DNA of 55,368 nucleotides from Polyangiaceae bacterium (GTDB taxonomy: Bacteria; Myxococcota_A; Polyangia; Polyangiales; Polyangiaceae): positions 1-55,368 of the forward strand of contig JADLAB010000365.1 in the NCBI GenBank assembly GCA_020848455.1, written 5' to 3'. Below are positions 5,189 to 30,242 of the stretch, in pieces. The notes under the pieces were generated by a model. The model did no database searches. It worked only from the letters and a program-made list of their open reading frames with translations, and was not told where the DNA came from. Position 1 is the first letter of the stretch; every line of letters starts with the position of its first letter. Both the position numbers and the translations under genes were made by a program.

Positions 5189-5231
5189 GGCTCCGGGAAT
5201 CGATCCCAGACGCTCCTGAGGAGGCTTGCCC

Positions 5232-6086
5232 ATGCGACGTGCGATCGTTTCGTTCCTTCTGGTTACTCCCCTCGCGTTCGGCCTGGCAGCCGTCGGCTGC
5301 AACCAAGATGGCGGCGCGAACGCCGACAACCCCGGAGCGTGCGGTAACCTCGACTTCTCGGCGTTCGCCGAGTGTCACGTCGAAGTGAGCGGCGGCTGCA
5401 CGCTCCTGTGCGAGCCCGTCAGCTTCAAGGCCGAGTGCTACGCCGACTGCAGCGGTGGCTGCAACGTCAACGTCAACGCCAGCTGCACGACGACCTGCCA
5501 GGGCGGCTGCGAGGCGGACTGCAACGTGAACCCGCCGAGCTTCGACTGCGAGGGCTCGTGCACCGCGAGCTGCAGCGGCAACTGCGGCGCCCAGTGCTCG
5601 GCCGCGGCCAACCAGGCCGAGTGCCAGGCCGCCTGTCAGGGCACCTGCGAGGGCGACTGCCACGCGTCCTGCACCGGGACGCCGGGGTCGGCCGACTGCG
5701 CGGCGAAGTGCGAGGCGTCCTGCGAGGGCGAGTGCACGGCCGAGGCGAACATGGACTGCGAGGTGAACTGCCAGGGCAACTGCATGGCAGAGCTCACCGG
5801 CGGCTGCGAGGGCGACTGTACCGCGCCGGAAGGCGCGCTCTTCTGCGACGGCCAGTACGTCGATGTCGTCGGTAGCTTCGAGGACTGCATCGCCTCGCTC
5901 GAGGCGATGTTCACCATCAACATCGACGCGAGCGGCAGCGCCTCCTGCAAGGACGGCAAGTGCTCGGCCTCGGGCGTCGCCTCCTGCGCCGTGAGCCCGG
6001 GCTCCGGCCCCGAGGGCGTCGGCTGGCTCGCGGCGGGCATCGCCGCCGTGGGGCTCGGCCTCGGAGCACGCCGCCGCCGCGGCTGA
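5232..6086 (+). CDS. Cys-rich lipoprotein with CxxxC repeats and C-terminal sorting-like tail
   Basis: This 284-residue exported protein of unknown function starts with a lipoprotein signal ending AAVGC (residues 19-23). From about residue 37 to 205 cysteines recur every fourth position in runs such as CQAACQGTCEGDCHASC, a dense CxxxC ladder presumably fully disulphide-bonded. The C-terminus has Cys-Ala-Val, a Gly/Pro spacer, a hydrophobic segment (GWLAAGIAAVGLGLG) and ARRRRG, the same three-part layout as MYXO-CTERM-type sorting tails. ATG 5232 is preferred over TTG 5226 because GAGGAGG lies 7 nt before the ATG but only 1 nt before the TTG. Proteins with both a lipobox and such a tail are odd; either signal could be incidental. 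Confidence 0.85.
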   Translation: MRRAIVSFLLVTPLAFGLAAVGCNQDGGANADNPGACGNLDFSAFAECHVEVSGGCTLLCEPVSFKAECYADCSGGCNVNVNASCTTTCQGGCEADCNVNPPSFDCEGSCTASCSGNCGAQCSAAANQAECQAACQGTCEGDCHASCTGTPGSADCAAKCEASCEGECTAEANMDCEVNCQGNCMAELTGGCEGDCTAPEGALFCDGQYVDVVGSFEDCIASLEAMFTINIDASGSASCKDGKCSASGVASCAVSPGSGPEGVGWLAAGIAAVGLGLGARRRRG

Positions 6087-21115: not shown

Positions 21116-22282
21116 TCAGGGCGCGGGCTTCGGGTTGCGCACGCAGCGGAAGCCGAGGCCGGGCACGCGGTAGTCGACGCGCGCGTTGCCGCGGTACTGT
21201 GCGCGGATGCCGAGGTGGCTGCGGTTCCAGCCGCCGCCGCGGATCATGTGCTGGGTGTGCTCGGCGCGCAGGTGGAGCGGATCGACCTCGTCCTTGCCCG
21301 AGTAGGCCTCGTAGTTGTCGAGGCACCACTCCCACACGTTGCCCGCGAGGTCGTGCAGGGCGCCGGTCGGCCACACGCGATCGCCCGCGGGGTGGGCCCC
21401 GACCGGAGAGGTGCCGCCGCCGTGGCAGCCGGCGTCGCCCGACGGCGTCGGCAGGACGTCCTGGGTGTAGTCCGCGCGCTCGCAGTCCGGCGGCTCGTCG
21501 CCCCAGGGCCACTTGCGGCCGTCGCCGCCGGTCGCTGCCCACTCCCACTGCGCCTCGGTCGGGAGTGTCTTGCCGCGCAGCTCGCAGTAGTGCTTGGCCT
21601 GGTGCCAGTCGACGTTGTTGATGGGGTGCGTCGGGCGCGCGGCGCCCTGCACGGGCTGTCCCTCGGGGGGCGGGCGCCGGGGCCCATTGGCGAACGAGCC
21701 CCACCAGTTGTTGGGTGTGCACTCGTGGGCGTCGATGCACTCGGTGTACGCGGCGGCCGTCACCTCGCCCGCGTCCATGCAGAACGGCCGCGTGAGCACG
21801 ACCTTGTGCGGCACGCCGTCGAAGTTGCGCAGGTTGGCGCCCATCACGAAGCCCTCGGGGCCGGTCGCCGGCACGTACACCTCGCCCTCGGGGCAGGCGG
21901 GCGCGCAGCGCGCCCCGGCGGCGTCGCAGCGCTCGAGGTCGTGGCACACGAGCGCGTCTCGCCCCGCGCAGCGGAGCGTGCCTCCCTCGCAGCGGCAGTC
22001 GCCGGAGCTCGTCACGGTGGCGGGGCTCGTCGTTGCGGACGGCGCCGCGGTCGCGCCCGGGACGCCGGCCGCCTCGGAGGTGGTCTCGCGCGGCGCGCCG
22101 CGCGACGGAGCGACCGACGCGCTCGCGGAGGGAGCGGTCGCTCCGCTCGCGCGCGCGGGCGCGCCGGCACCGGCCGTGGCGGTCGCGGCGGTCGCCTGCC
22201 CCGTCGCGCTCGCCGAGTTGCACGCGAGCGCGCCCGAGAGCACGAGGAGCGCGAGCGCCGTCGGACGGTCCGGACCCTGCAT
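21116..22282 (-). CDS. SUMF1/FGE-fold lipoprotein
   Basis: The 388-residue exported protein has a lipoprotein signal (ALAC, about residue 21), a long Ala/Ser/Thr linker to about residue 90, a small Cys module (DCRCEGGTLRCAGRDALVC), and a SUMF1 domain from about 140: FVMGANLRNFDGVPHKV, NNVDWHQAKHYCE, LPTEAQWEWAATGGDG, DLAGNVWEW and the closing GLGFRCVRNP. The catalytic Cys pair of true formylglycine-generating enzymes, expected just after RGGSW, is absent: the sequence there is RGGGWNRSHLGIRAQYR. It is therefore probably a binding or other non-FGE member, common in this phylum. ATG 22282 follows TAGGCA by 7 nt. It is third in a minus-strand group of exported proteins. Confidence 0.88.
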   Translation of the reverse strand: MQGPDRPTALALLVLSGALACNSASATGQATAATATAGAGAPARASGATAPSASASVAPSRGAPRETTSEAAGVPGATAAPSATTSPATVTSSGDCRCEGGTLRCAGRDALVCHDLERCDAAGARCAPACPEGEVYVPATGPEGFVMGANLRNFDGVPHKVVLTRPFCMDAGEVTAAAYTECIDAHECTPNNWWGSFANGPRRPPPEGQPVQGAARPTHPINNVDWHQAKHYCELRGKTLPTEAQWEWAATGGDGRKWPWGDEPPDCERADYTQDVLPTPSGDAGCHGGGTSPVGAHPAGDRVWPTGALHDLAGNVWEWCLDNYEAYSGKDEVDPLHLRAEHTQHMIRGGGWNRSHLGIRAQYRGNARVDYRVPGLGFRCVRNPKPAP

Positions 22283-22347: not shown

Positions 22348-23607
22348 TCAGCGCTCGGGCTCGGGCACGAGCGGCGCGCAGCCGCGCGCGTCGAAGGCGC
22401 CGAGCGTGAGCGCGCGCTCGTCCGAGAAGTGGCGCGCCTGGGAGAAGAGGCGCGTGAGCTCGGCGCGGGCATAGGGCTCGGTCTGCGCCCGCCGCTCGTC
22501 GGCGGCGAGCGGGATCGGCTGCAGGTAGTGGATGCGGTAGGGGCACACCGACAGGGCCGGCGGGGCGCCGCGGCGCAGCTCGATGCGCGCGACGAAGCCG
22601 AGCCCCGTCAGCATCACGCCCGTCTTCATCGACATGAGGAGGTTGCCGAGGCTGTAGAACACGGGGCGCCCCGCGAGCAGCGCCGCGCGCTGCGGGACGT
22701 GGGGGTGGTGGCCGAGCACGAGGTCGGCGCCGGCGTCGACGGCCAGCTGGAACACCGCGCGCTTGGCCGGGATGGGCGTGTCCACGTACTCGTCGAGGCC
22801 GTGGTAGCTGACGGCGACGACGTCGGCCGAGGCGCGTGCGCGCGTGATCGCGGCGACCAGAGCGTCGCGCTCCGCGGCGTCGGCCACGCGCTCCTTGCCG
22901 GGGTGGGCCGGCAGGGCCTGGTTCCAGATGGCCGTCACCGCCACGAAGGCGATGCGCAGGCCGCGCCGCTCGACGATCACGGGCTCCCAGGCGCGCGCGC
23001 GGTCGCGCCCCGCCCCGACCCAGCCGACCCCGGCGCGCTCGAGGTTGTCGAAGGTCTCGAACAGCGCCGACTCGCCGTAGTCCCAGGCGTGGTTGTTGGC
23101 GAGCGACACGAGCTCGATGCGCGCCCGCGCGAGCGCCTCGGCGCCGTTCGGCGGACCGGTGAACACGAGCCGGCTCGCGGGGTGCACCGTCTCGCCGTGC
23201 TGGTCGCTCAACACGCTCTCGAGGTTCACGAAGCGCAGATCCGCGTCGTCCCAGAGCCGCGCCACGAGCGCGAGCTCGTCGTGGCCGGGGTCGCGCAGCA
23301 GTCGCTGTCCCTCCTCGCGTCCGAGGCACACGTCGCCGCCGGCCACGAGCACGACCGGCTCGTCGGTCGCGGCCGCCGCGGCCGGTGGCTCGACCTGCCC
23401 GGTCGCGCCCGGCGCCGCCTCGCTCGTCGAGCCCGGCGCGGGCGCGCGCTCGGGCTCGTCGCTCGCGCCCGGCGCCTCGGGGGCCGTCGTCTCGGTCGCG
23501 GCAGCGGGCGCCGCGCTCGGGCGCGGGCGCTCGGCTTCGGGCTCGTCGGGCGCGCACCCGGCGCCGAGCGCACACACCACGAACAGCGGCAGGAACCGAC
23601 GGAGCAC
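22348..23607 (-). CDS. CapA/PgsA-family metallophosphatase-like lipoprotein
   Basis: This 419-residue protein has a lipoprotein signal (ALGAGC, about residue 18) and a Pro/Ala/Thr linker to about residue 85, then a PGA_cap domain. Metal-ligand motifs of this calcineurin-like family are present: GDVCLGRE, NLESV, SLANNHAWDYGE, YHGLDEYVD, LGHHPHVPQ and YSLGNLL. Members include CapA of poly-gamma-glutamate synthesis, but no capB/capC genes are nearby, so polymer synthesis is not implied. The start is GTG at 23607 with a poor SD and an ATACTT just upstream. It lies 92 bp downstream of the knottin-repeat gene and 65 bp upstream of the SUMF1-fold gene. Confidence 0.9.
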   Translation of the reverse strand: MLRRFLPLFVVCALGAGCAPDEPEAERPRPSAAPAAATETTAPEAPGASDEPERAPAPGSTSEAAPGATGQVEPPAAAAATDEPVVLVAGGDVCLGREEGQRLLRDPGHDELALVARLWDDADLRFVNLESVLSDQHGETVHPASRLVFTGPPNGAEALARARIELVSLANNHAWDYGESALFETFDNLERAGVGWVGAGRDRARAWEPVIVERRGLRIAFVAVTAIWNQALPAHPGKERVADAAERDALVAAITRARASADVVAVSYHGLDEYVDTPIPAKRAVFQLAVDAGADLVLGHHPHVPQRAALLAGRPVFYSLGNLLMSMKTGVMLTGLGFVARIELRRGAPPALSVCPYRIHYLQPIPLAADERRAQTEPYARAELTRLFSQARHFSDERALTLGAFDARGCAPLVPEPER

Positions 23608-23699: not shown

Positions 23700-25217
23700 C
23701 TAGAAGCAGAGCGCGGCGCAGTTGCCCGTCACGCAGCTCGTCCAGTTGTTGCAGCTATTGCTGGTGCAGCAGGTCTGCTGGCACTGGCCCGGCGGCGTGT
23801 TGCCGATGACGCAGTTCTGGAAGCAGGCCATCGCGCTCGAGCAGTTCGGATCGGCCAGGCACGTCTCGGTCTGCGAGCAGCAGTTGTTGACGATGCACTG
23901 GCTGCAGGGCGTGCCACCCGGGTCGAGCGAGCAGTTGCCCGCGTCGACCGGCGTGCCGCAGTGCCCGCCGCTGCACACGAGGCCGCTGCAGCACTGCGGG
24001 GTCGTGTTGCAGCTCGAGCCCGTCGGCAGGCAGCCGCCGGGGCCGCATTTGCCGCCGTTGCACTGGTTGCTGCAGCACTCGGCCGGCGTCGTGCAGTCGA
24101 AGCCGTCGAGCGTGCAGCCCGACGGGCCGCAGGTGCCGTTCGCGTTGCACTGCCCGCTGCAGCACTCCTGGTTCTGGAAGCAGAAGGCGCCGTCCGGAAC
24201 GCACTGGCCGCCGCCGCAAGTCGAGGAGTTGGGGTCGCAGAAGAAGGAGCAGCACTCCTGGTCGAAGCTGCAGAAGCCGCCGTCCGGCTGGCAGTTGCCG
24301 AAGCCGCAAGTGAAGAAGTTGGGGTCGCAGTAAAAGGAGCAGCACTCCTCGTTGAAGTTGCAGAAGGCGCCGTCGGGCTGGCAGTTGCTGAAGCCGCAGG
24401 TGAACGTGTTCGGGTTGCAGTACTGCGTGCAGCACTCGCCGTCGAAGTTGCAGAACGATCCGTCCGGCAGGCACGTGCCGCCGCCGCACACGCCGTTCGC
24501 GTTGCAGAGCTGGCTGCAGCACTCGCCGGGCGAGCCGCACGGGGTGCCGTCGGGCTGGCAGCCGCCCGGCACGCAGGTGTTGGCCTCGCAGGTGCCGGAG
24601 CAGCACTGCGAGCCCTGGGTGCAGAAGAAGCCGTTCTGCTGGCAGCTCGAGCCGCCGCAGTGGTTGTCCGTGCAGTCGAGATCGTTGCAGCACTCGCTCT
24701 TCGCGAAGCACACGGCGCCCTGCGGCTTGCACTGCGGGAACTGGCAGTAGCCGCTGGTGCACGTGAGGTTGCAGCACTCGGTCCCGAGGTCGCAGGCCGA
24801 GCCGTCGGGCTTGCACTGCGTGCCGCCGCAGAAGCCATTTTCGCATACGAAGCTGCAGCACTCGACGGCGTCGCCGCAGGGCTCGCCGTTGGGCGTGCAC
24901 TCGGAGCCGCCGCAGTAGCCGCCGAAGCAGTCGAGGTTGCAGCACTCGATGGTGGTGCTGCAGGCCTTGCCGTCGGGCTTGCAGATCGAGACCGGCTTGC
25001 AGATGCCCGTCTCGCAGGTGAGCTCGGCGCTGCAGCAGTCGCCCGACTGCTGGCAGGCGTCGCCCACCGCGGCGCAGCTCGTGGTGGTCGTCGAGCCCTC
25101 GTCGGGGTTCTCGATGCTGCGCGCCCCGCAGGACGACGCCATGACCGCCACGAGCGCCCCGAGCGCGAGCGCGCCGAGCAGGGCTCCGAGCCTCGAAGGG
25201 AAAGAGAAGGTGTGCAC
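23700..25217 (-). CDS. Exported protein with 13 tandem knottin-like Cys repeats
   Basis: The 505-residue protein starts with a hydrophobic signal ending ASSC (Cys30), a weak lipobox, then a Glu/Thr spacer. From about residue 48 to 420 there are 13 tandem repeats of 27-30 residues with cysteine spacing C-x6-C-x5-CC-x3(4,5)-C-x4(5,6)-C, for example CQPDGTPCGSPGECCSQLC. This is the six-cysteine framework of inhibitor cystine-knot peptides. Each repeat starts C-x-P-D-G-like. The last 75 residues form a different Cys-rich domain with CC and CFQNC motifs. I prefer GTG 25217, since TACGAT ends 6 nt before it; an in-frame TTG at 25235 would lie upstream of that box. CapA-like and SUMF1-fold genes follow on the same strand. 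Confidence 0.87.
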   Translation of the reverse strand: MHTFSFPSRLGALLGALALGALVAVMASSCGARSIENPDEGSTTTTSCAAVGDACQQSGDCCSAELTCETGICKPVSICKPDGKACSTTIECCNLDCFGGYCGGSECTPNGEPCGDAVECCSFVCENGFCGGTQCKPDGSACDLGTECCNLTCTSGYCQFPQCKPQGAVCFAKSECCNDLDCTDNHCGGSSCQQNGFFCTQGSQCCSGTCEANTCVPGGCQPDGTPCGSPGECCSQLCNANGVCGGGTCLPDGSFCNFDGECCTQYCNPNTFTCGFSNCQPDGAFCNFNEECCSFYCDPNFFTCGFGNCQPDGGFCSFDQECCSFFCDPNSSTCGGGQCVPDGAFCFQNQECCSGQCNANGTCGPSGCTLDGFDCTTPAECCSNQCNGGKCGPGGCLPTGSSCNTTPQCCSGLVCSGGHCGTPVDAGNCSLDPGGTPCSQCIVNNCCSQTETCLADPNCSSAMACFQNCVIGNTPPGQCQQTCCTSNSCNNWTSCVTGNCAALCF

Positions 25218-25292: not shown

Positions 25293-28200
25293 TCAGCGCT
25301 GTTTCGGCACGATGCGCCCGTCGACGAGCTCGAAGGGCAGGCGCGCGACGAGGGGCGCGAGCGCCTCGGCCGTGCGCGTGTCGACGTGCACGTCCCACAG
25401 CTTCGCCACGCCGTCGCCGAGCGTCAGCAGGCGCTCGGCCGAGGCGCCGACCCCGAGCGCCGCGAGCTCGCGGTGCGCCGGGAGCGTCGCGAGCAGGCGG
25501 CCGCTCGCCGCATCCCAGAGCCGCGCCGTGCCGTCGGTGCCGGCCGTCACGATCCGCGTGCCGCCGTCGAGCCAGTGGGCGACGACGAGCGCTCCGGTGT
25601 GACCGTCGGGCTTCGGAGCGAGCGCTTCGCCCGAGAACGCGCGGGCGAGGGCGTAGCCTTCCGTGTCGGTGTGGCTGTCGAGGGTGATGGGTGGGGCGGT
25701 CGACCCGATGGTGTGGATGCGCGCCGTGGCCGAGGTGCTCTCGATGACGAGCACGCGCTCTGCGCCGGGGGCGAGCGCGCCCTCGAGGCCCTCGACGGCG
25801 AGCAGCTCCCCGCCTGCGGGCACGCTCACGACCCGCACCGACCGCTCGGACAGCGACAACAGGAGGCGGCTACCGTCGGCGGAGAGGGCAGCGCGTGGCC
25901 GCTCGCGCGGCGCGTCCCCGGCGGCGGGCGAGGTGTACACGAGCGCGCCGGTGTCGGCGTGCCACACGCGCGCCACCTCCGCGTCGACGGTGACGATGCG
26001 GCGGCCGTCGCCGCTCAGGCCCACCATCGCGATGGGGGCCTTGTGTCCGGCGAGCACGTGGCGCCGCTCGCCCGTCGAGCTCCACACCTCGACCGCGGCG
26101 CCGTCGCCCGCGACGACCACGCCGTCGTGGCCGAAGGCGGCGTCGCGGCAGGTGCCGGTGCCGAGGCGCGCGAGGAGCCGGCCGTCGAGGTCGTAGATCG
26201 CGGCGCCGCCCTCGGCGTCGGCGACGAAGCGCTCTCCGTCGGGGCTCCACGCCGCGGCAAACGCGTGCGACACGAGGCGCCGGACGGCACGGTCGCCAGG
26301 GAAGAACGTGCCGGCGTCCGCGACGGCCTCGGTGAAGGCGTGCGGCCGCGCACCCTCGAGGCGCGCGACGCGCTCGGCGCCGCGCCACAGGGTCGCGCCC
26401 TCTTGGCTCGTCGTGACGACGTGCTCGCCGTCGGGCGCGAGCGCCGCGCGCGCCACGGCTTGCGCCTCGGAGGCTGCGTCGCCCCAGGCGGGGCGCCCGA
26501 TCGTCGCCGCGAGGCGGCTGGCGCGCGTGCTCCACACCATGACCGCGCCCGACGCGTCCGCGCTCGCGATGCGCGTGCCGTCGGGGTGGAAGGCAGCCAC
26601 GGCGACGGGCGCCGCGTGGCCGCCGAAGGCGCCGAGCGGGTGGCCCGTCGCGGCGTCCCAGAGGCGCGGGCTCGTGTCGCTCCCCACCGTCAAGAGCACG
26701 AGACCGTCGGGCGAGAAGCTCGCCGCGTGGACGTTGGCGCTCGTGATCGCCCCCTGCCACAGGAAGGTGTCGTGGCCGCCCGTCGTGGCGCGTAGCCGAC
26801 CGCTCGCCGACTCCCAGACCCGCGCGGCGTTGTCGTAGGCGACGCTCGCCACCGCCGCCGACGAGGGCGCGACGGCGAGCCAGCGCGCCGAGCTCCCCTC
26901 GGGGCCCATCGGCGTGCGCGTGCCGTCGCGCACGCCGACGAGCACGAGGCCGTGCTCCGCCTGCACGGCGAGGTGGTCGGCGTCGGCGAACGCGAGCTTC
27001 GAGACGCGCACGAGGTCGAGGGCGAGCACGCTGTCCTCGCTGCCGTCCGCGAGGCGGTGGAGCACGAGCTTGCCGCCTTCGTCGCCACTCGCCACGAGCG
27101 TGCCGTCCGGGCTCACCGCGAGATCGCGCACCGCCCGCACGCCCGCATGCTCGGCGACGGCGGCCCCGCTCGTCGCGTCGAAGAAGCGGAGCGTCCCGTC
27201 GCGCCCGCCGCTCACGAGCCGCCCGCCGCCCCAGGCCAGCGCCTCGACCGCCTTCGTGTGCCCCCCGAGTCGCAGCCGCACGACGCCGCCGTCGTCGACG
27301 ACGGCGATGCGTCCGTCCTCCGTGCCGAGCGCGAGGCGCCGCGCGTCGGGCGCCGGCACGAGCGCCGTCACCTTCGTGCCCTCGAGCGCGGTGACCCGGA
27401 AGCGCGCGGCGGTGCCGTCGAAGGCTGCCACCTCCGCGTCCTCGGTCACCGTGACGAGCGCCCCGCCCATCCAGCTCAGGTGGGCGATCGCGCGGTCGTG
27501 CGCCTGCATGCCGTAGAGCAGCGCGTCGGCCGGGCGCGTCGCGTCCGCGAGCATGGCGCGCAGGGCCGGCTCGTCGCCGCCGCGCAGGCGGGCCTCGTGC
27601 AGGAAGACGAGCGCACGCAGCGGCTTGCCGTCGACGAGCTCGCGCCGACCCTGCTCGGTGAGCAGGCGGATGGTGCGCTGGGACGCGTCGGCCTCCTGCT
27701 TCTTCGCTTCGGCCGCGTGGCCCGCGGCGACGGTCGCCATCTGCTCGGCCGCGCCGCGCTGCTGCCAGGCGAACGCGCCGAAGGTGCCGGCGAGGGCCGT
27801 GAGGAGCGCGAGCGCCCCGACCGCCCCGCGCTTGAGCCGCCGCGTGCGCCGGCCCCGGGCGCGCGACGCCTCGATGAACGCGACCTCGATGCCCACGAGC
27901 GTGTCGCGCTGGGCCTCGTAGAGCTCCTCGGCCTCGATGAGGGGCTTGCCGTCGCCGAGCAAGAGATCCGGCGCGCGCCCCTCCCTGTCCCAGCGCGCCG
28001 CCGCCGTCGCGAGCCGCGCGCGCACGCGCACGAAGACCTCGTCCTCTTCGAGCCAGCGCCGCAGGCGCTCCCAGTGCCGGAGCAGCGCCTCGTGGACGAG
28101 CTCGACGGCCTCGGGCGCGCCATCGCCCGCCTCGCGCGTCGTGACGAGGCGCGCCTCGGTCAGGCGATCGAGCACGACGACGCGGTCGTCGCGCGCGCCG

Positions 28201-30056
28201 CCGCTCTCGACCAGATCCGCCTTGGCGACGACGGCGCGGGTCCCCTCCTCGGTGACGAGGCGCAGGAGCATCGAGCGCGCCGTGGCGAGCTGCGACGGCG
28301 TCATCGCGGCGCTCACGCCCTCGGCGTGGGCTGCGAGCGCCCCTTCGACCCCGCCGACGGCGCGGTAGGCATCCCAGGTGAGGCGCTTCCAGGTGCGATC
28401 GCGGCGCTCCCACAGCTGGTCGGCGCAGAACTGCAGCATGGCGAGCGCCGCGGGCTCCCCGCGCACGGCCTCGACCATGCGCTCGACGAGCGCCTCGTCC
28501 TCGAACGAGAAGCCGAAGAGCGCCGCCGGCGCCGTGAGCACGCGCACGAGATCGCGCGCGTCGGGGGTCGCGACGACCTCGACCTGCCGGCTGTAGACGC
28601 CGCGCAGGGCCGGGATGGTCGCGAGGCGCGCGAAGAAGTCCTCGCGCAGCGACACGACGACGCGGCACGGCGCCTCGGCGTCGTGCCCGATGGACGCGAG
28701 CGCCGCGCCGAAGGCGGCGCGCGCCGGCTCGTCGTGGCACAGCGTGAACAGCTCCTCGGCCTGATCGACGGCGACGCACACGACGGTGCCGCGCTCGCGC
28801 GCGAAGCGCTCGAGGTGCAGGCCGAGCGTCTCCGGGGCGTCGGCGAGCACGGGGCCGAGATCGGTCGGAGCCGTCGAGCCCGCGAGCAGCGGCTCGAGCT
28901 TGCGCCGCAGCGCCTCGAGCGGGTCCGAGCCCGGGCGCAGCGTCACGACCGTCATGTCGAGCAGCGGAAAGACCCCCGCGTGCAGGAGCGAGCTCTTGCC
29001 GCCGCCGCTCGGCCCCGTGACGGTCACCATCGGGTGGCGGCGGATGCGGTTGCCGAGGGTCTCGGCCTGCTCCTCGCGCCCGAAGAAGAGGGCGGCGTGC
29101 TCGGCGCCGAAGCTCGCCAGCCCGCGGTACGGTCGCGACGAGCCACGGGCCGAGGCGGGCGCCTCGTCGTCGTGGCCGTCGAGCAGGCTCTTGCCGAGCG
29201 CGCTCCAGGCGTCGTTCTCGCGGTGCTCGGCCATCGAGGGAAAGGCGACGTAGAGCGCGGCGTTCTTCTTGGCGCCGTCGAGGAAGAAGAGCTCCTCGAC
29301 CGCCTCGGGGCTCGCGCGGCGGAAGAGCGCGATGGGGTGGAGCGACAGCCGTGGCCGCCCCTCGGCGTCGACGAGCACCACCTCGCCCGGCGGCAGGCGC
29401 ACCCCCGGCGCGAGGCTGCGCCGCGGCCAGCGACCGCGCCCCGGCGTGTAGCCATGGAGGCGATAGGCGAGCTGCAGCGTCTCCTGCTCGGCAGGCGCGG
29501 CGAGCGGCACGCACAGCTCGAGCGCTCCCCACACCGGCTCGAGCATGGCGAAGAGCGCCGTGAGCTGGGGCTCGCGGCGCTCGAGGACCTTGCGGATGGC
29601 GTCGGCGCTCCCCGTCGCGCCGTGGGCCACCGTCTCGGCCTTGCGCATCTCGAGCAGGCCGTCGACGACCTTGCCGACCTTGCCTTTGTCGCGCCCGCAG
29701 AGCAGGCGCGCGAGCGCGGGGAGCACGTGCGCGTCCTCGCTGCCCGACCACGACGCGCAGAGCCCGCGCAGCAGACCGACCCACTGCCCGTCGGTGAGCC
29801 CGCGCGAGCGGAGCCCGCGCATCATGTCGCGCACCTCGCGCCCCTCCTCGGCCGGCCCGCGCCCGCGCTGCACGCGCGCCGCGAGGGCGAGCGCCGCCGT
29901 GTGGCGCAGGGCGGCGCGGAAGCACTCCACCACGCGGTCTCGTCGCTCGTGCAGGCTGTCGGCCGCCGCGAGCGCGCAGAGCGCGTCGGCGACGGGCAGC
30001 GGGTAGCCGGTCGCCCCGCGCGCGACGACATCGACCGCGTCGTCCTGCTCCGTCAC
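25293..30056 (-). CDS. nSTAND NTPase with transmembrane segment and WD40 repeats
   Basis: This 1,587-residue protein has four parts. The N-terminal 300 residues form a helical region ending with RPRLSLHPIALFRRASPEAV and an acidic ELFFLDGAKKNAALYVAFPS segment, a module I have seen beside kinases and STAND proteins but cannot name. An nSTAND1 NTPase follows: Walker A GPSGGGKSS at about 344, Walker B VVCVAVDQAEEL, sensor SLREDFFARL. One membrane helix lies at about 740-762, followed by a coiled Ala/Gln stretch. From about 830 to the end are roughly a dozen or more WD40 repeats (SPDGTLVASGD, SPDGLVLLTVGSD, RLWDAATGHPL). GTG 30056 has a GGAGCAGGGG site. It diverges from the kinase operon. Signalling or a defence-like sensor role are both possible. 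Confidence 0.9.
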   Translation of the reverse strand: MTEQDDAVDVVARGATGYPLPVADALCALAAADSLHERRDRVVECFRAALRHTAALALAARVQRGRGPAEEGREVRDMMRGLRSRGLTDGQWVGLLRGLCASWSGSEDAHVLPALARLLCGRDKGKVGKVVDGLLEMRKAETVAHGATGSADAIRKVLERREPQLTALFAMLEPVWGALELCVPLAAPAEQETLQLAYRLHGYTPGRGRWPRRSLAPGVRLPPGEVVLVDAEGRPRLSLHPIALFRRASPEAVEELFFLDGAKKNAALYVAFPSMAEHRENDAWSALGKSLLDGHDDEAPASARGSSRPYRGLASFGAEHAALFFGREEQAETLGNRIRRHPMVTVTGPSGGGKSSLLHAGVFPLLDMTVVTLRPGSDPLEALRRKLEPLLAGSTAPTDLGPVLADAPETLGLHLERFARERGTVVCVAVDQAEELFTLCHDEPARAAFGAALASIGHDAEAPCRVVVSLREDFFARLATIPALRGVYSRQVEVVATPDARDLVRVLTAPAALFGFSFEDEALVERMVEAVRGEPAALAMLQFCADQLWERRDRTWKRLTWDAYRAVGGVEGALAAHAEGVSAAMTPSQLATARSMLLRLVTEEGTRAVVAKADLVESGGARDDRVVVLDRLTEARLVTTREAGDGAPEAVELVHEALLRHWERLRRWLEEDEVFVRVRARLATAAARWDREGRAPDLLLGDGKPLIEAEELYEAQRDTLVGIEVAFIEASRARGRRTRRLKRGAVGALALLTALAGTFGAFAWQQRGAAEQMATVAAGHAAEAKKQEADASQRTIRLLTEQGRRELVDGKPLRALVFLHEARLRGGDEPALRAMLADATRPADALLYGMQAHDRAIAHLSWMGGALVTVTEDAEVAAFDGTAARFRVTALEGTKVTALVPAPDARRLALGTEDGRIAVVDDGGVVRLRLGGHTKAVEALAWGGGRLVSGGRDGTLRFFDATSGAAVAEHAGVRAVRDLAVSPDGTLVASGDEGGKLVLHRLADGSEDSVLALDLVRVSKLAFADADHLAVQAEHGLVLVGVRDGTRTPMGPEGSSARWLAVAPSSAAVASVAYDNAARVWESASGRLRATTGGHDTFLWQGAITSANVHAASFSPDGLVLLTVGSDTSPRLWDAATGHPLGAFGGHAAPVAVAAFHPDGTRIASADASGAVMVWSTRASRLAATIGRPAWGDAASEAQAVARAALAPDGEHVVTTSQEGATLWRGAERVARLEGARPHAFTEAVADAGTFFPGDRAVRRLVSHAFAAAWSPDGERFVADAEGGAAIYDLDGRLLARLGTGTCRDAAFGHDGVVVAGDGAAVEVWSSTGERRHVLAGHKAPIAMVGLSGDGRRIVTVDAEVARVWHADTGALVYTSPAAGDAPRERPRAALSADGSRLLLSLSERSVRVVSVPAGGELLAVEGLEGALAPGAERVLVIESTSATARIHTIGSTAPPITLDSHTDTEGYALARAFSGEALAPKPDGHTGALVVAHWLDGGTRIVTAGTDGTARLWDAASGRLLATLPAHRELAALGVGASAERLLTLGDGVAKLWDVHVDTRTAEALAPLVARLPFELVDGRIVPKQR

Positions 30057-30242
30057 GCCCCTGCTCCTGCGAGCTCTGCCCCGAGCACGGCCGCGTACTG
30101 CCACGTAGCCCGGCGCGCCGCCACCGGCCTCGCGCTCCGGCTCGTCGTCGCCCACGGCGGTGCACCGGGCACGACCGGCTCGCCCGCGAGCGGATCGGTA
30201 TCAAGCTCGACAGCTCGTGGTCGGCGGCCTACGAAGTCAGCG

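What the first reader, a model, noticed from the sequence alone, without database searches (positions are those of the whole stretch)
23700..25217. Tandem array of 13 knottin-like cysteine repeats in one exported protein
The sequence shows 13 successive repeats with the cysteine frame C-x6-C-x5-CC-x3..5-C-x4..6-C. Inhibitor cystine-knot peptides (conotoxin O-superfamily, spider toxins, other knottins) use the same six-Cys framework with the vicinal CC in the middle. Each repeat is toxin-sized (27-30 residues), they are joined with almost no linker, and the loops vary while the CxPDG start is kept. A bacterial protein with so many knots could be a rigid surface scaffold, a binder array, or a precursor processed into single knots. 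It leads a three-gene group of exported proteins (CapA-like and SUMF1-fold).
Basis: partly seen in the sequence, partly recalled or inferred. Interest (0 to 1): 0.75.

Follow-up and report, generated by a model that had tools for sequence, protein, structure and literature searches.

The report
Bacterial lipoprotein of thirteen tandem knottins
A Myxococcota bacterium makes an exported protein built of 13 small disulphide-knotted domains that look like the cores of spider and cone-snail toxins, and such arrays (up to 36 copies) turn out to be common in its relatives, a bacterial use of a fold best known from animal venoms and plant inhibitors.

Summary

The knottin (inhibitor cystine knot, ICK) reading is well supported. 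A profile of 50 bacterial repeats matches only ICK-type peptides in the PDB (33 hits, best E 1.2e-4); a control with the same cysteines but shuffled loops gives one hit at E 0.12. A confident AlphaFold2 model superposes on omega-atracotoxin at 1.0 Å. Across about 1,100 repeats, cysteine 4 is lost only together with cysteine 1 (8 of 8), as a C1-C4 bond predicts. C2-C5 and C3-C6 rest on the model alone.

It is not unique: 80 of 97 close relatives and 92 of 284 genomes across the phylum have such repeats. Linkers almost never carry dibasic sites, so a processed precursor is unlikely. In six Polyangium orthologues loops 2-3 evolve near or above the neutral rate while cysteines are fixed. I favour a lipid-anchored, protease-resistant array with diversifying, probably binding, loops. 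Function is unproven. The CapA/SUMF1 neighbourhood is not conserved.

The parts
23700..25217 (-). gene of the 13-knottin array protein (GTG start, 505 aa)
   Evidence: GC at codon position 3 0.97
25128..25217 (-). signal peptide and putative lipobox ...VMASSC-GARS
   Evidence: sequence; same arrangement in relatives
25077..25127 (-). short Ser/Thr-rich spacer
   Evidence: sequence
24999..25076 (-). ICK repeat 1
24912..24983 (-). ICK repeat 2 (keeps its position in four of five relatives' best matches, and is also the best match in the fifth)
24828..24899 (-). ICK repeat 3
24744..24815 (-). ICK repeat 4
24657..24731 (-). ICK repeat 5
24573..24644 (-). ICK repeat 6
24486..24560 (-). ICK repeat 7
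24396..24473 (-). ICK repeat 8 (8-10 closest to each other: local duplication)
24306..24383 (-). ICK repeat 9
24216..24293 (-). ICK repeat 10
24129..24203 (-). ICK repeat 11
24045..24116 (-). ICK repeat 12
23958..24032 (-). ICK repeat 13 (best match is the last repeat in all five relatives)
23703..23933 (-). C-terminal domain, 14 invariant Cys among 18 aligned relatives, predicted all-helical

Best explanation
The gene encodes an exported lipoprotein that carries 13 tandem ICK (knottin) domains and ends in a conserved helical, disulphide-rich C-terminal domain. Each 24-26-residue repeat folds by itself with bonds C1-C4, C2-C5, C3-C6. Short Gly-rich linkers string the knots into a compact, protease-resistant chain at the cell envelope, probably on the outer face of the outer membrane. 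The frame is fixed while loops 2 and 3 change freely, so the array most likely works as a multivalent recognition or adhesive surface (towards matrix, prey, phage or neighbouring cells), with the C-terminal domain as an invariant tip or attachment piece. Shown by computation: the repeat frame, its ICK-like character, C1-C4 co-loss, loop divergence in relatives, the spread and the C-terminal domain. Inferred: lipidation, surface exposure, C2-C5 and C3-C6 pairing, and the binding role.
For: 13 regular repeats. Profile hits are ICK-type peptides, best omega-atracotoxin E 1.2e-4 and omega-conotoxin Bu8 4.4e-4; loop-shuffled control 1 hit at 0.12. AF2 triple repeat pLDDT 86; Foldseek best 1hvw, rmsd 1.0 Å over 25 columns, TMt 0.77, with 25 of 27 listed matches ICK-type by name. 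C4 lost only with C1, 8 of 8 among ~1,119 repeats. Relatives pass Pfam's whole-protein cut-off for PF17557 Conotoxin_I2, up to 84 bits against 27. Lipobox-like N-termini in at least 55 of 82 arrays, +2 residue mostly Gly. Repeat number varies up to 36 while the last repeat and the second keep their place. Loops 2+3 pN/pS 1.27 (0.95-1.84) against 0.25 for the C-terminal domain and 0.19-0.31 for three neighbour genes.
Against: Foldseek E-values are not significant for so short a domain (best 0.36) and VIA-align Z is below 3. The window protein's own lipobox is weak. pN/pS near 1 also fits unconstrained loops in a pure spacer; the fast-loop result comes from Polyangium orthologues, not the window gene, and the own-genus pair of 7-repeat arrays is too short to decide. 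Most arrays (65 of 84 with at least 5 repeats) lack the C-terminal domain motif, in part because some are cut short. No experiment exists.
Confidence: 0.5

Rival explanations
1. Inert rigid stalk or coat: the knots are only a stable spacer, as proposed for the Cys-rich repeats of TraA, that holds the C-terminal domain (or nothing) away from the membrane; loops drift because only the cysteines matter.
For: Repeat number varies freely; Cys pN is 0 and loop pN/pS is near 1; the C-terminal domain is constrained (0.25) and conserved; TraA repeats are individually dispensable and viewed as a stalk (PMC6372800).
Against: Loop 3 reaches pN/pS 1.88 (1.10-3.84), although its pS is low; most arrays have no recognisable head domain; pTM does not predict a rigid rod.
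Confidence: 0.3
2. Precursor: the chain is cut into single knottin peptides that act as secreted toxins, protease inhibitors or antimicrobials against prey or competitors.
For: Repeats are toxin-sized and toxin-like; the organisms are in a phylum rich in predators (general knowledge).
Against: 5 of 861 linkers dibasic, linkers 0-8 residues and Gly-rich; no propeptide spacers; lipoprotein-type N-termini.
Confidence: 0.08
3. Not a true ICK: a six-cysteine repeat of other connectivity that happens to share the spacing (for example colipase/Dickkopf-like).
For: Only C1-C4 has independent support; colipase is the top VIA-align row, Z 2.9 at 4.1 Å.
Against: Profile finds ICK peptides only, and not by spacing alone; model superposes on ICK at 1.0 Å.
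Confidence: 0.1

Closest known systems
ICK/knottin peptides: omega-atracotoxin-Hv1a (1hvw), omega-conotoxins, plant knottin inhibitors
   Same: Six-cysteine frame with vicinal CC, Gly before C2, CCS, Gly near C6; predicted fold superposes at 1.0 Å.
   Different: Those are single (sometimes double) secreted peptides of eukaryotes; here 13, elsewhere up to 36, copies sit in one bacterial exported protein. Common descent cannot be told from convergence in 24 residues.
SCREPs, secreted cysteine-rich repeat proteins such as DkTx and Hi1a (PMC6262176)
   Same: Tandem disulphide-rich domains in one secreted chain; bacteria are listed among SCREP-bearing taxa; two-domain toxins gain avidity.
   Different: The passages read do not describe bacterial ICK arrays; ICK was not among the 20 commonest SCREP folds and the ICK examples there have two knots.
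TraA Cys-rich stalk of myxobacteria (TIGR04201; PMC3325183, PMC6372800)
   Same: Myxobacterial envelope protein with tandem Cys-rich repeats of varying number, thought to form a stalk.
   Different: TraA repeats are ~20 aa with three invariant cysteines, a PA14 head and a MYXO-CTERM tag; no NCBIfam model hits our protein or eight relatives.
DDH (disulphide-directed beta-hairpin) peptides (PMC11891777)
   Same: Repeats that have lost C1 and C4 keep four cysteines in the order of the DDH motif (bonds 1-3 and 2-4).
   Different: Here four- and six-cysteine repeats sit side by side in one bacterial array; the DDH fold of the four-cysteine ones was not tested.

Membership tests
ICK / knottin fold | six cysteines in the order C..C..CC..C..C | tested here: met
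   13 of 13 repeats
ICK / knottin fold | similarity to solved ICK domains beyond cysteine spacing | tested here: met
   (33 hits, ICK-type by name, best 1.2e-4) against loop-shuffled control (1 hit, 0.12)
ICK / knottin fold | knottin fold in a predicted model | tested here: met
   pLDDT 86; 1hvw rmsd 1.0 Å over 25 columns, TMt 0.77; but Foldseek E only 0.36
ICK / knottin fold | C1-C4, C2-C5, C3-C6 connectivity, third bond threading the ring | tested here: inconclusive
   C1-C4 supported by co-loss; the other two only through the model; coordinates not available
Pfam Conotoxin_I2 PF17557, Toxin_19, Toxin_12 | Pfam gathering score for this protein | tested here: not met
   15.1, 18.8, 16.6 bits against 27, 23.2, 21; relatives do pass PF17557, which I read as shared fold, not venom function
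Toxin-type precursor | processing sites that release single domains | tested here: not met
   5 of 861 linkers dibasic; other proteases not excluded
TraA-type Cys-rich repeat TIGR04201 | match to the NCBIfam model | tested here: not met
   no NCBIfam match at E <= 1 for the protein and eight relatives
Bacterial lipoprotein | signal peptide with lipobox Cys | tested here: inconclusive
   weak lipobox MASSC here; lipobox-like N-terminus in 55 of 82 arrays by a home-made rule
SCREP | secreted chain with tandem cysteine-rich domains | tested here: met
   loose definition from PMC6262176
Surface-exposed outer-membrane protein | accessibility on intact cells | not testable with these tools
   needs surface proteolysis or labelling

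The most novel reading that the evidence does not exclude
Myxococcota have turned the knottin into a bacterial repeat-protein scaffold: envelope-anchored arrays of up to 36 ICK domains whose frame is fixed and whose loops diversify under selection for recognition (of kin, prey or phage), with DDH-like two-bond repeats arising inside the same arrays by joint loss of C1 and C4, so that the debated DDH-ICK transition can be followed in bacteria.
Probability: 0.3. Interest if true: 0.8.

Novelty: new variant of a known kind. Interest (0 to 1): 0.6.

Why it matters
ICK domains are known chiefly as eukaryotic venom peptides and plant inhibitors; their origin and their relation to the DDH fold are debated. 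Hundreds of bacterial repeats with the same frame, in tandem, widen the known range of the fold, give a large natural library of loop sequences on a very stable scaffold, and show mixed six- and four-cysteine repeats in one chain, which bears on how the third disulphide is gained or lost. For myxobacterial biology they mark a large uncharacterised class of fast-evolving envelope proteins.

Tried and rejected
Single-protein scans of genome contigs and viral contigs with the whole protein found nothing, because the patterns were too specific; the first alignment was too divergent to search with; a closer C-terminal alignment found named Polyangium, Minicystis and MAG relatives. No match in phages or plasmids at E 1e-3. 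PDB fold searches of the C-terminal domain gave nothing convincing: best Foldseek E 3.9; GFR-alpha domains at Z about 3 are too weak to use. The operon idea was dropped: neighbours differ in relatives. Promoter and terminator scans were uninformative. Apparent single losses of C5 or C6 were long loops, not losses, and most apparent C1-only losses are shifted or first repeats. Literature searches for bacterial ICK arrays found none in the open library; subscription papers and database annotation were not searched.

Full report
What is there. On the minus strand, 25217-23700, a 505-aa open reading frame (GTG start, third-position GC 0.97) begins with a hydrophobic stretch ending MASSC-GARS, continues with a short Ser/Thr-rich spacer, and then has 13 repeats of C-x6-C-x5-CC-x3..5-C-x4..6-C joined by 4-5 residues. 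The pattern almost never arises when the same residues are shuffled (mean 0.002). The alignment of these 13 repeats with seven from a second array of the same genome has the consensus CxPDGxxCxxxxECCSxxCxxGxC, in which only the six cysteines and one glycine are invariant. After repeat 13 comes a different domain of about 77 residues with 14 cysteines, invariant among 18 aligned relatives.

Is it a knottin? The protein alone gives sub-threshold Pfam matches, all to conotoxin or spider-toxin families, and several relatives pass Pfam's whole-protein cut-off for Conotoxin_I2, the best at 84 bits against 27. A profile of 50 repeats from many loci finds 33 distinct PDB sequences at E <= 1. By their names these are venom ICK peptides, knottin-type trypsin inhibitors and one engineered peptide, with omega-atracotoxin-Hv1a first at 1.2e-4. 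To see whether this is only cysteine spacing, I shuffled the non-cysteine residues within each repeat and repeated the search: one hit at 0.12. So loop residues (the Gly before C2, D/E/Q before CC, CCS, the Gly before C6) contribute most of the signal above background. AlphaFold2 on three repeats with 52 sequences gives pLDDT 86. Foldseek ranks 1hvw first (1.0 Å over 25 columns, TMt 0.77), and 25 of 27 listed matches are ICK-type by name; the E-values are weak, as expected for 25 residues. VIA-align gives Z below 3, which neither helps nor hurts.

Connectivity. I collected 107 distinct repeat-bearing frames with 1,106 repeats. If C1 and C4 are bonded, they should be lost together. No repeat lacks C4 alone; all eight that lack C4 also lack C1, and keep C2, C3, C5 and C6. 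They lie in six proteins (L009, L031 three times, L075, L079, L116, L120). Five frames lack C1 in its usual place but keep C4; most are first repeats or have a displaced cysteine upstream. A naive hypergeometric probability is 2e-17; the eight are not independent, so I use it only as a sign that the association is strong. C2-C5 and C3-C6 losses were not seen, so those two bonds rest on the model. The four-cysteine repeats have the cysteine order of the DDH motif, whose bonds are 1-3 and 2-4 (PMC11891777).

Spread. The window's genome has a second array of seven repeats (L002), three propeller-like proteins on contig 252 with one or two repeats at the C-terminus (L003, L004, L092) and a weaker set on contig 466. 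Matches occur in 80 of 97 searched relatives including the own genome and 92 of 284 genomes drawn across the phylum, in several classes. Named carriers of the same array-plus-C-terminal-domain protein are Polyangium species, Minicystis rosea and two MAGs. Arrays hold up to 36 repeats. No match was found in phage or plasmid records.

Architecture and turnover. Repeat 13 is closest to the last repeat of all five compared relatives, and repeat 2 to their second, whereas repeats 8-10 are closest to each other: the ends are old, the middle expands by local duplication. Linkers are Gly-rich and short; 118 of 861 hold any Lys or Arg and 5 a dibasic pair. At least 55 of 82 arrays with an N-terminus have a lipobox-like site with Gly mostly at +2; several misses are evident lipoproteins by eye. 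The C-terminal domain is predicted as six helices (pLDDT 88, pTM 0.74), has no convincing PDB relative, and also occurs in short proteins without knots: 84 of 108 family genomes hold a match, and the strong ones that I translated all lie in ICK-array proteins.

Evolution of loops. For six Polyangium orthologues with 18 (one 17) repeats, counted by Nei-Gojobori, cysteine codons show no amino-acid change, the C-terminal domain pN/pS 0.25 (0.10-0.52), loops 1+4 0.76 (0.55-1.05), loops 2+3 1.27 (0.95-1.84), loop 3 alone 1.88 (1.10-3.84). Three neighbouring genes in four of these species give 0.19-0.31. Loop 3's ratio is raised by a low pS; with the gene-wide pS of about 0.15 (my arithmetic) loops 2 and 3 are both near 1.2-1.35. 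So loops are at least free of constraint and perhaps under diversifying selection. The own-genus pair of seven-repeat arrays is too small to tell.

How it most likely works. Steps shown: export signal, ICK-like repeats, fixed frame with fast loops, conserved separate end domain, free change of copy number. Steps inferred: lipid anchoring, oxidative folding in the periplasm, display at the cell surface, multivalent binding by loops. A passive stalk, as suggested for TraA's Cys-rich repeats (PMC3325183, PMC6372800), is the main rival, and the data do not settle it. Release of single knots is unlikely. The neighbours CapA-like (22348-23607), SUMF1-fold (21116-22282) and nSTAND1-WD40 (25293-30155) share the strand but not the company of the gene in relatives, where a GPAT-like protein, a murein endopeptidase or an acetate kinase lies near, so they say little about function.

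Novelty. The fold and the idea of tandem disulphide-rich domains are known; SCREP surveys even count bacteria. I found no description of bacterial ICK arrays in the searchable open literature, and no NCBIfam model covers them. I therefore call it a new variant of a known kind.

Noticed in passing
window 5226-6086 (+): Cys-rich (12.6%) exported protein with many C-x3-C-x2..3-C units and a C-terminal hydrophobic helix plus RRRR, like MYXO-CTERM; no Pfam match.
   Followed up: no
L002 / G000:C331: The second (7-repeat) array of the genome lies directly before a WD40-repeat membrane protein; in the window the 13-repeat array follows an nSTAND1-WD40 gene. May be chance.
   Followed up: no
L092 / G000:C252:3000-11000 (L003, L004): Paralogous propeller-like proteins in a row, each ending in one or two ICK-like repeats, so the module is also used as a C-terminal appendix.
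   Followed up: partly
L011, L012, L013, L017, L025: A third module recurs inside arrays: CxHDxCxxGxxLxxxCxxCxxxxCxxDxFCCxxxWDxxCVxxVxxxC (about 50 aa), breaking the knottin run.
   Followed up: no
L116 and L083: Arrays of 36 and 35 repeats in single frames, the longest found.
   Followed up: no
L166-L171 and other short proteins: The 14-Cys helical C-terminal domain appears to occur without knots in short proteins throughout the family; only L171 was read.
   Followed up: partly
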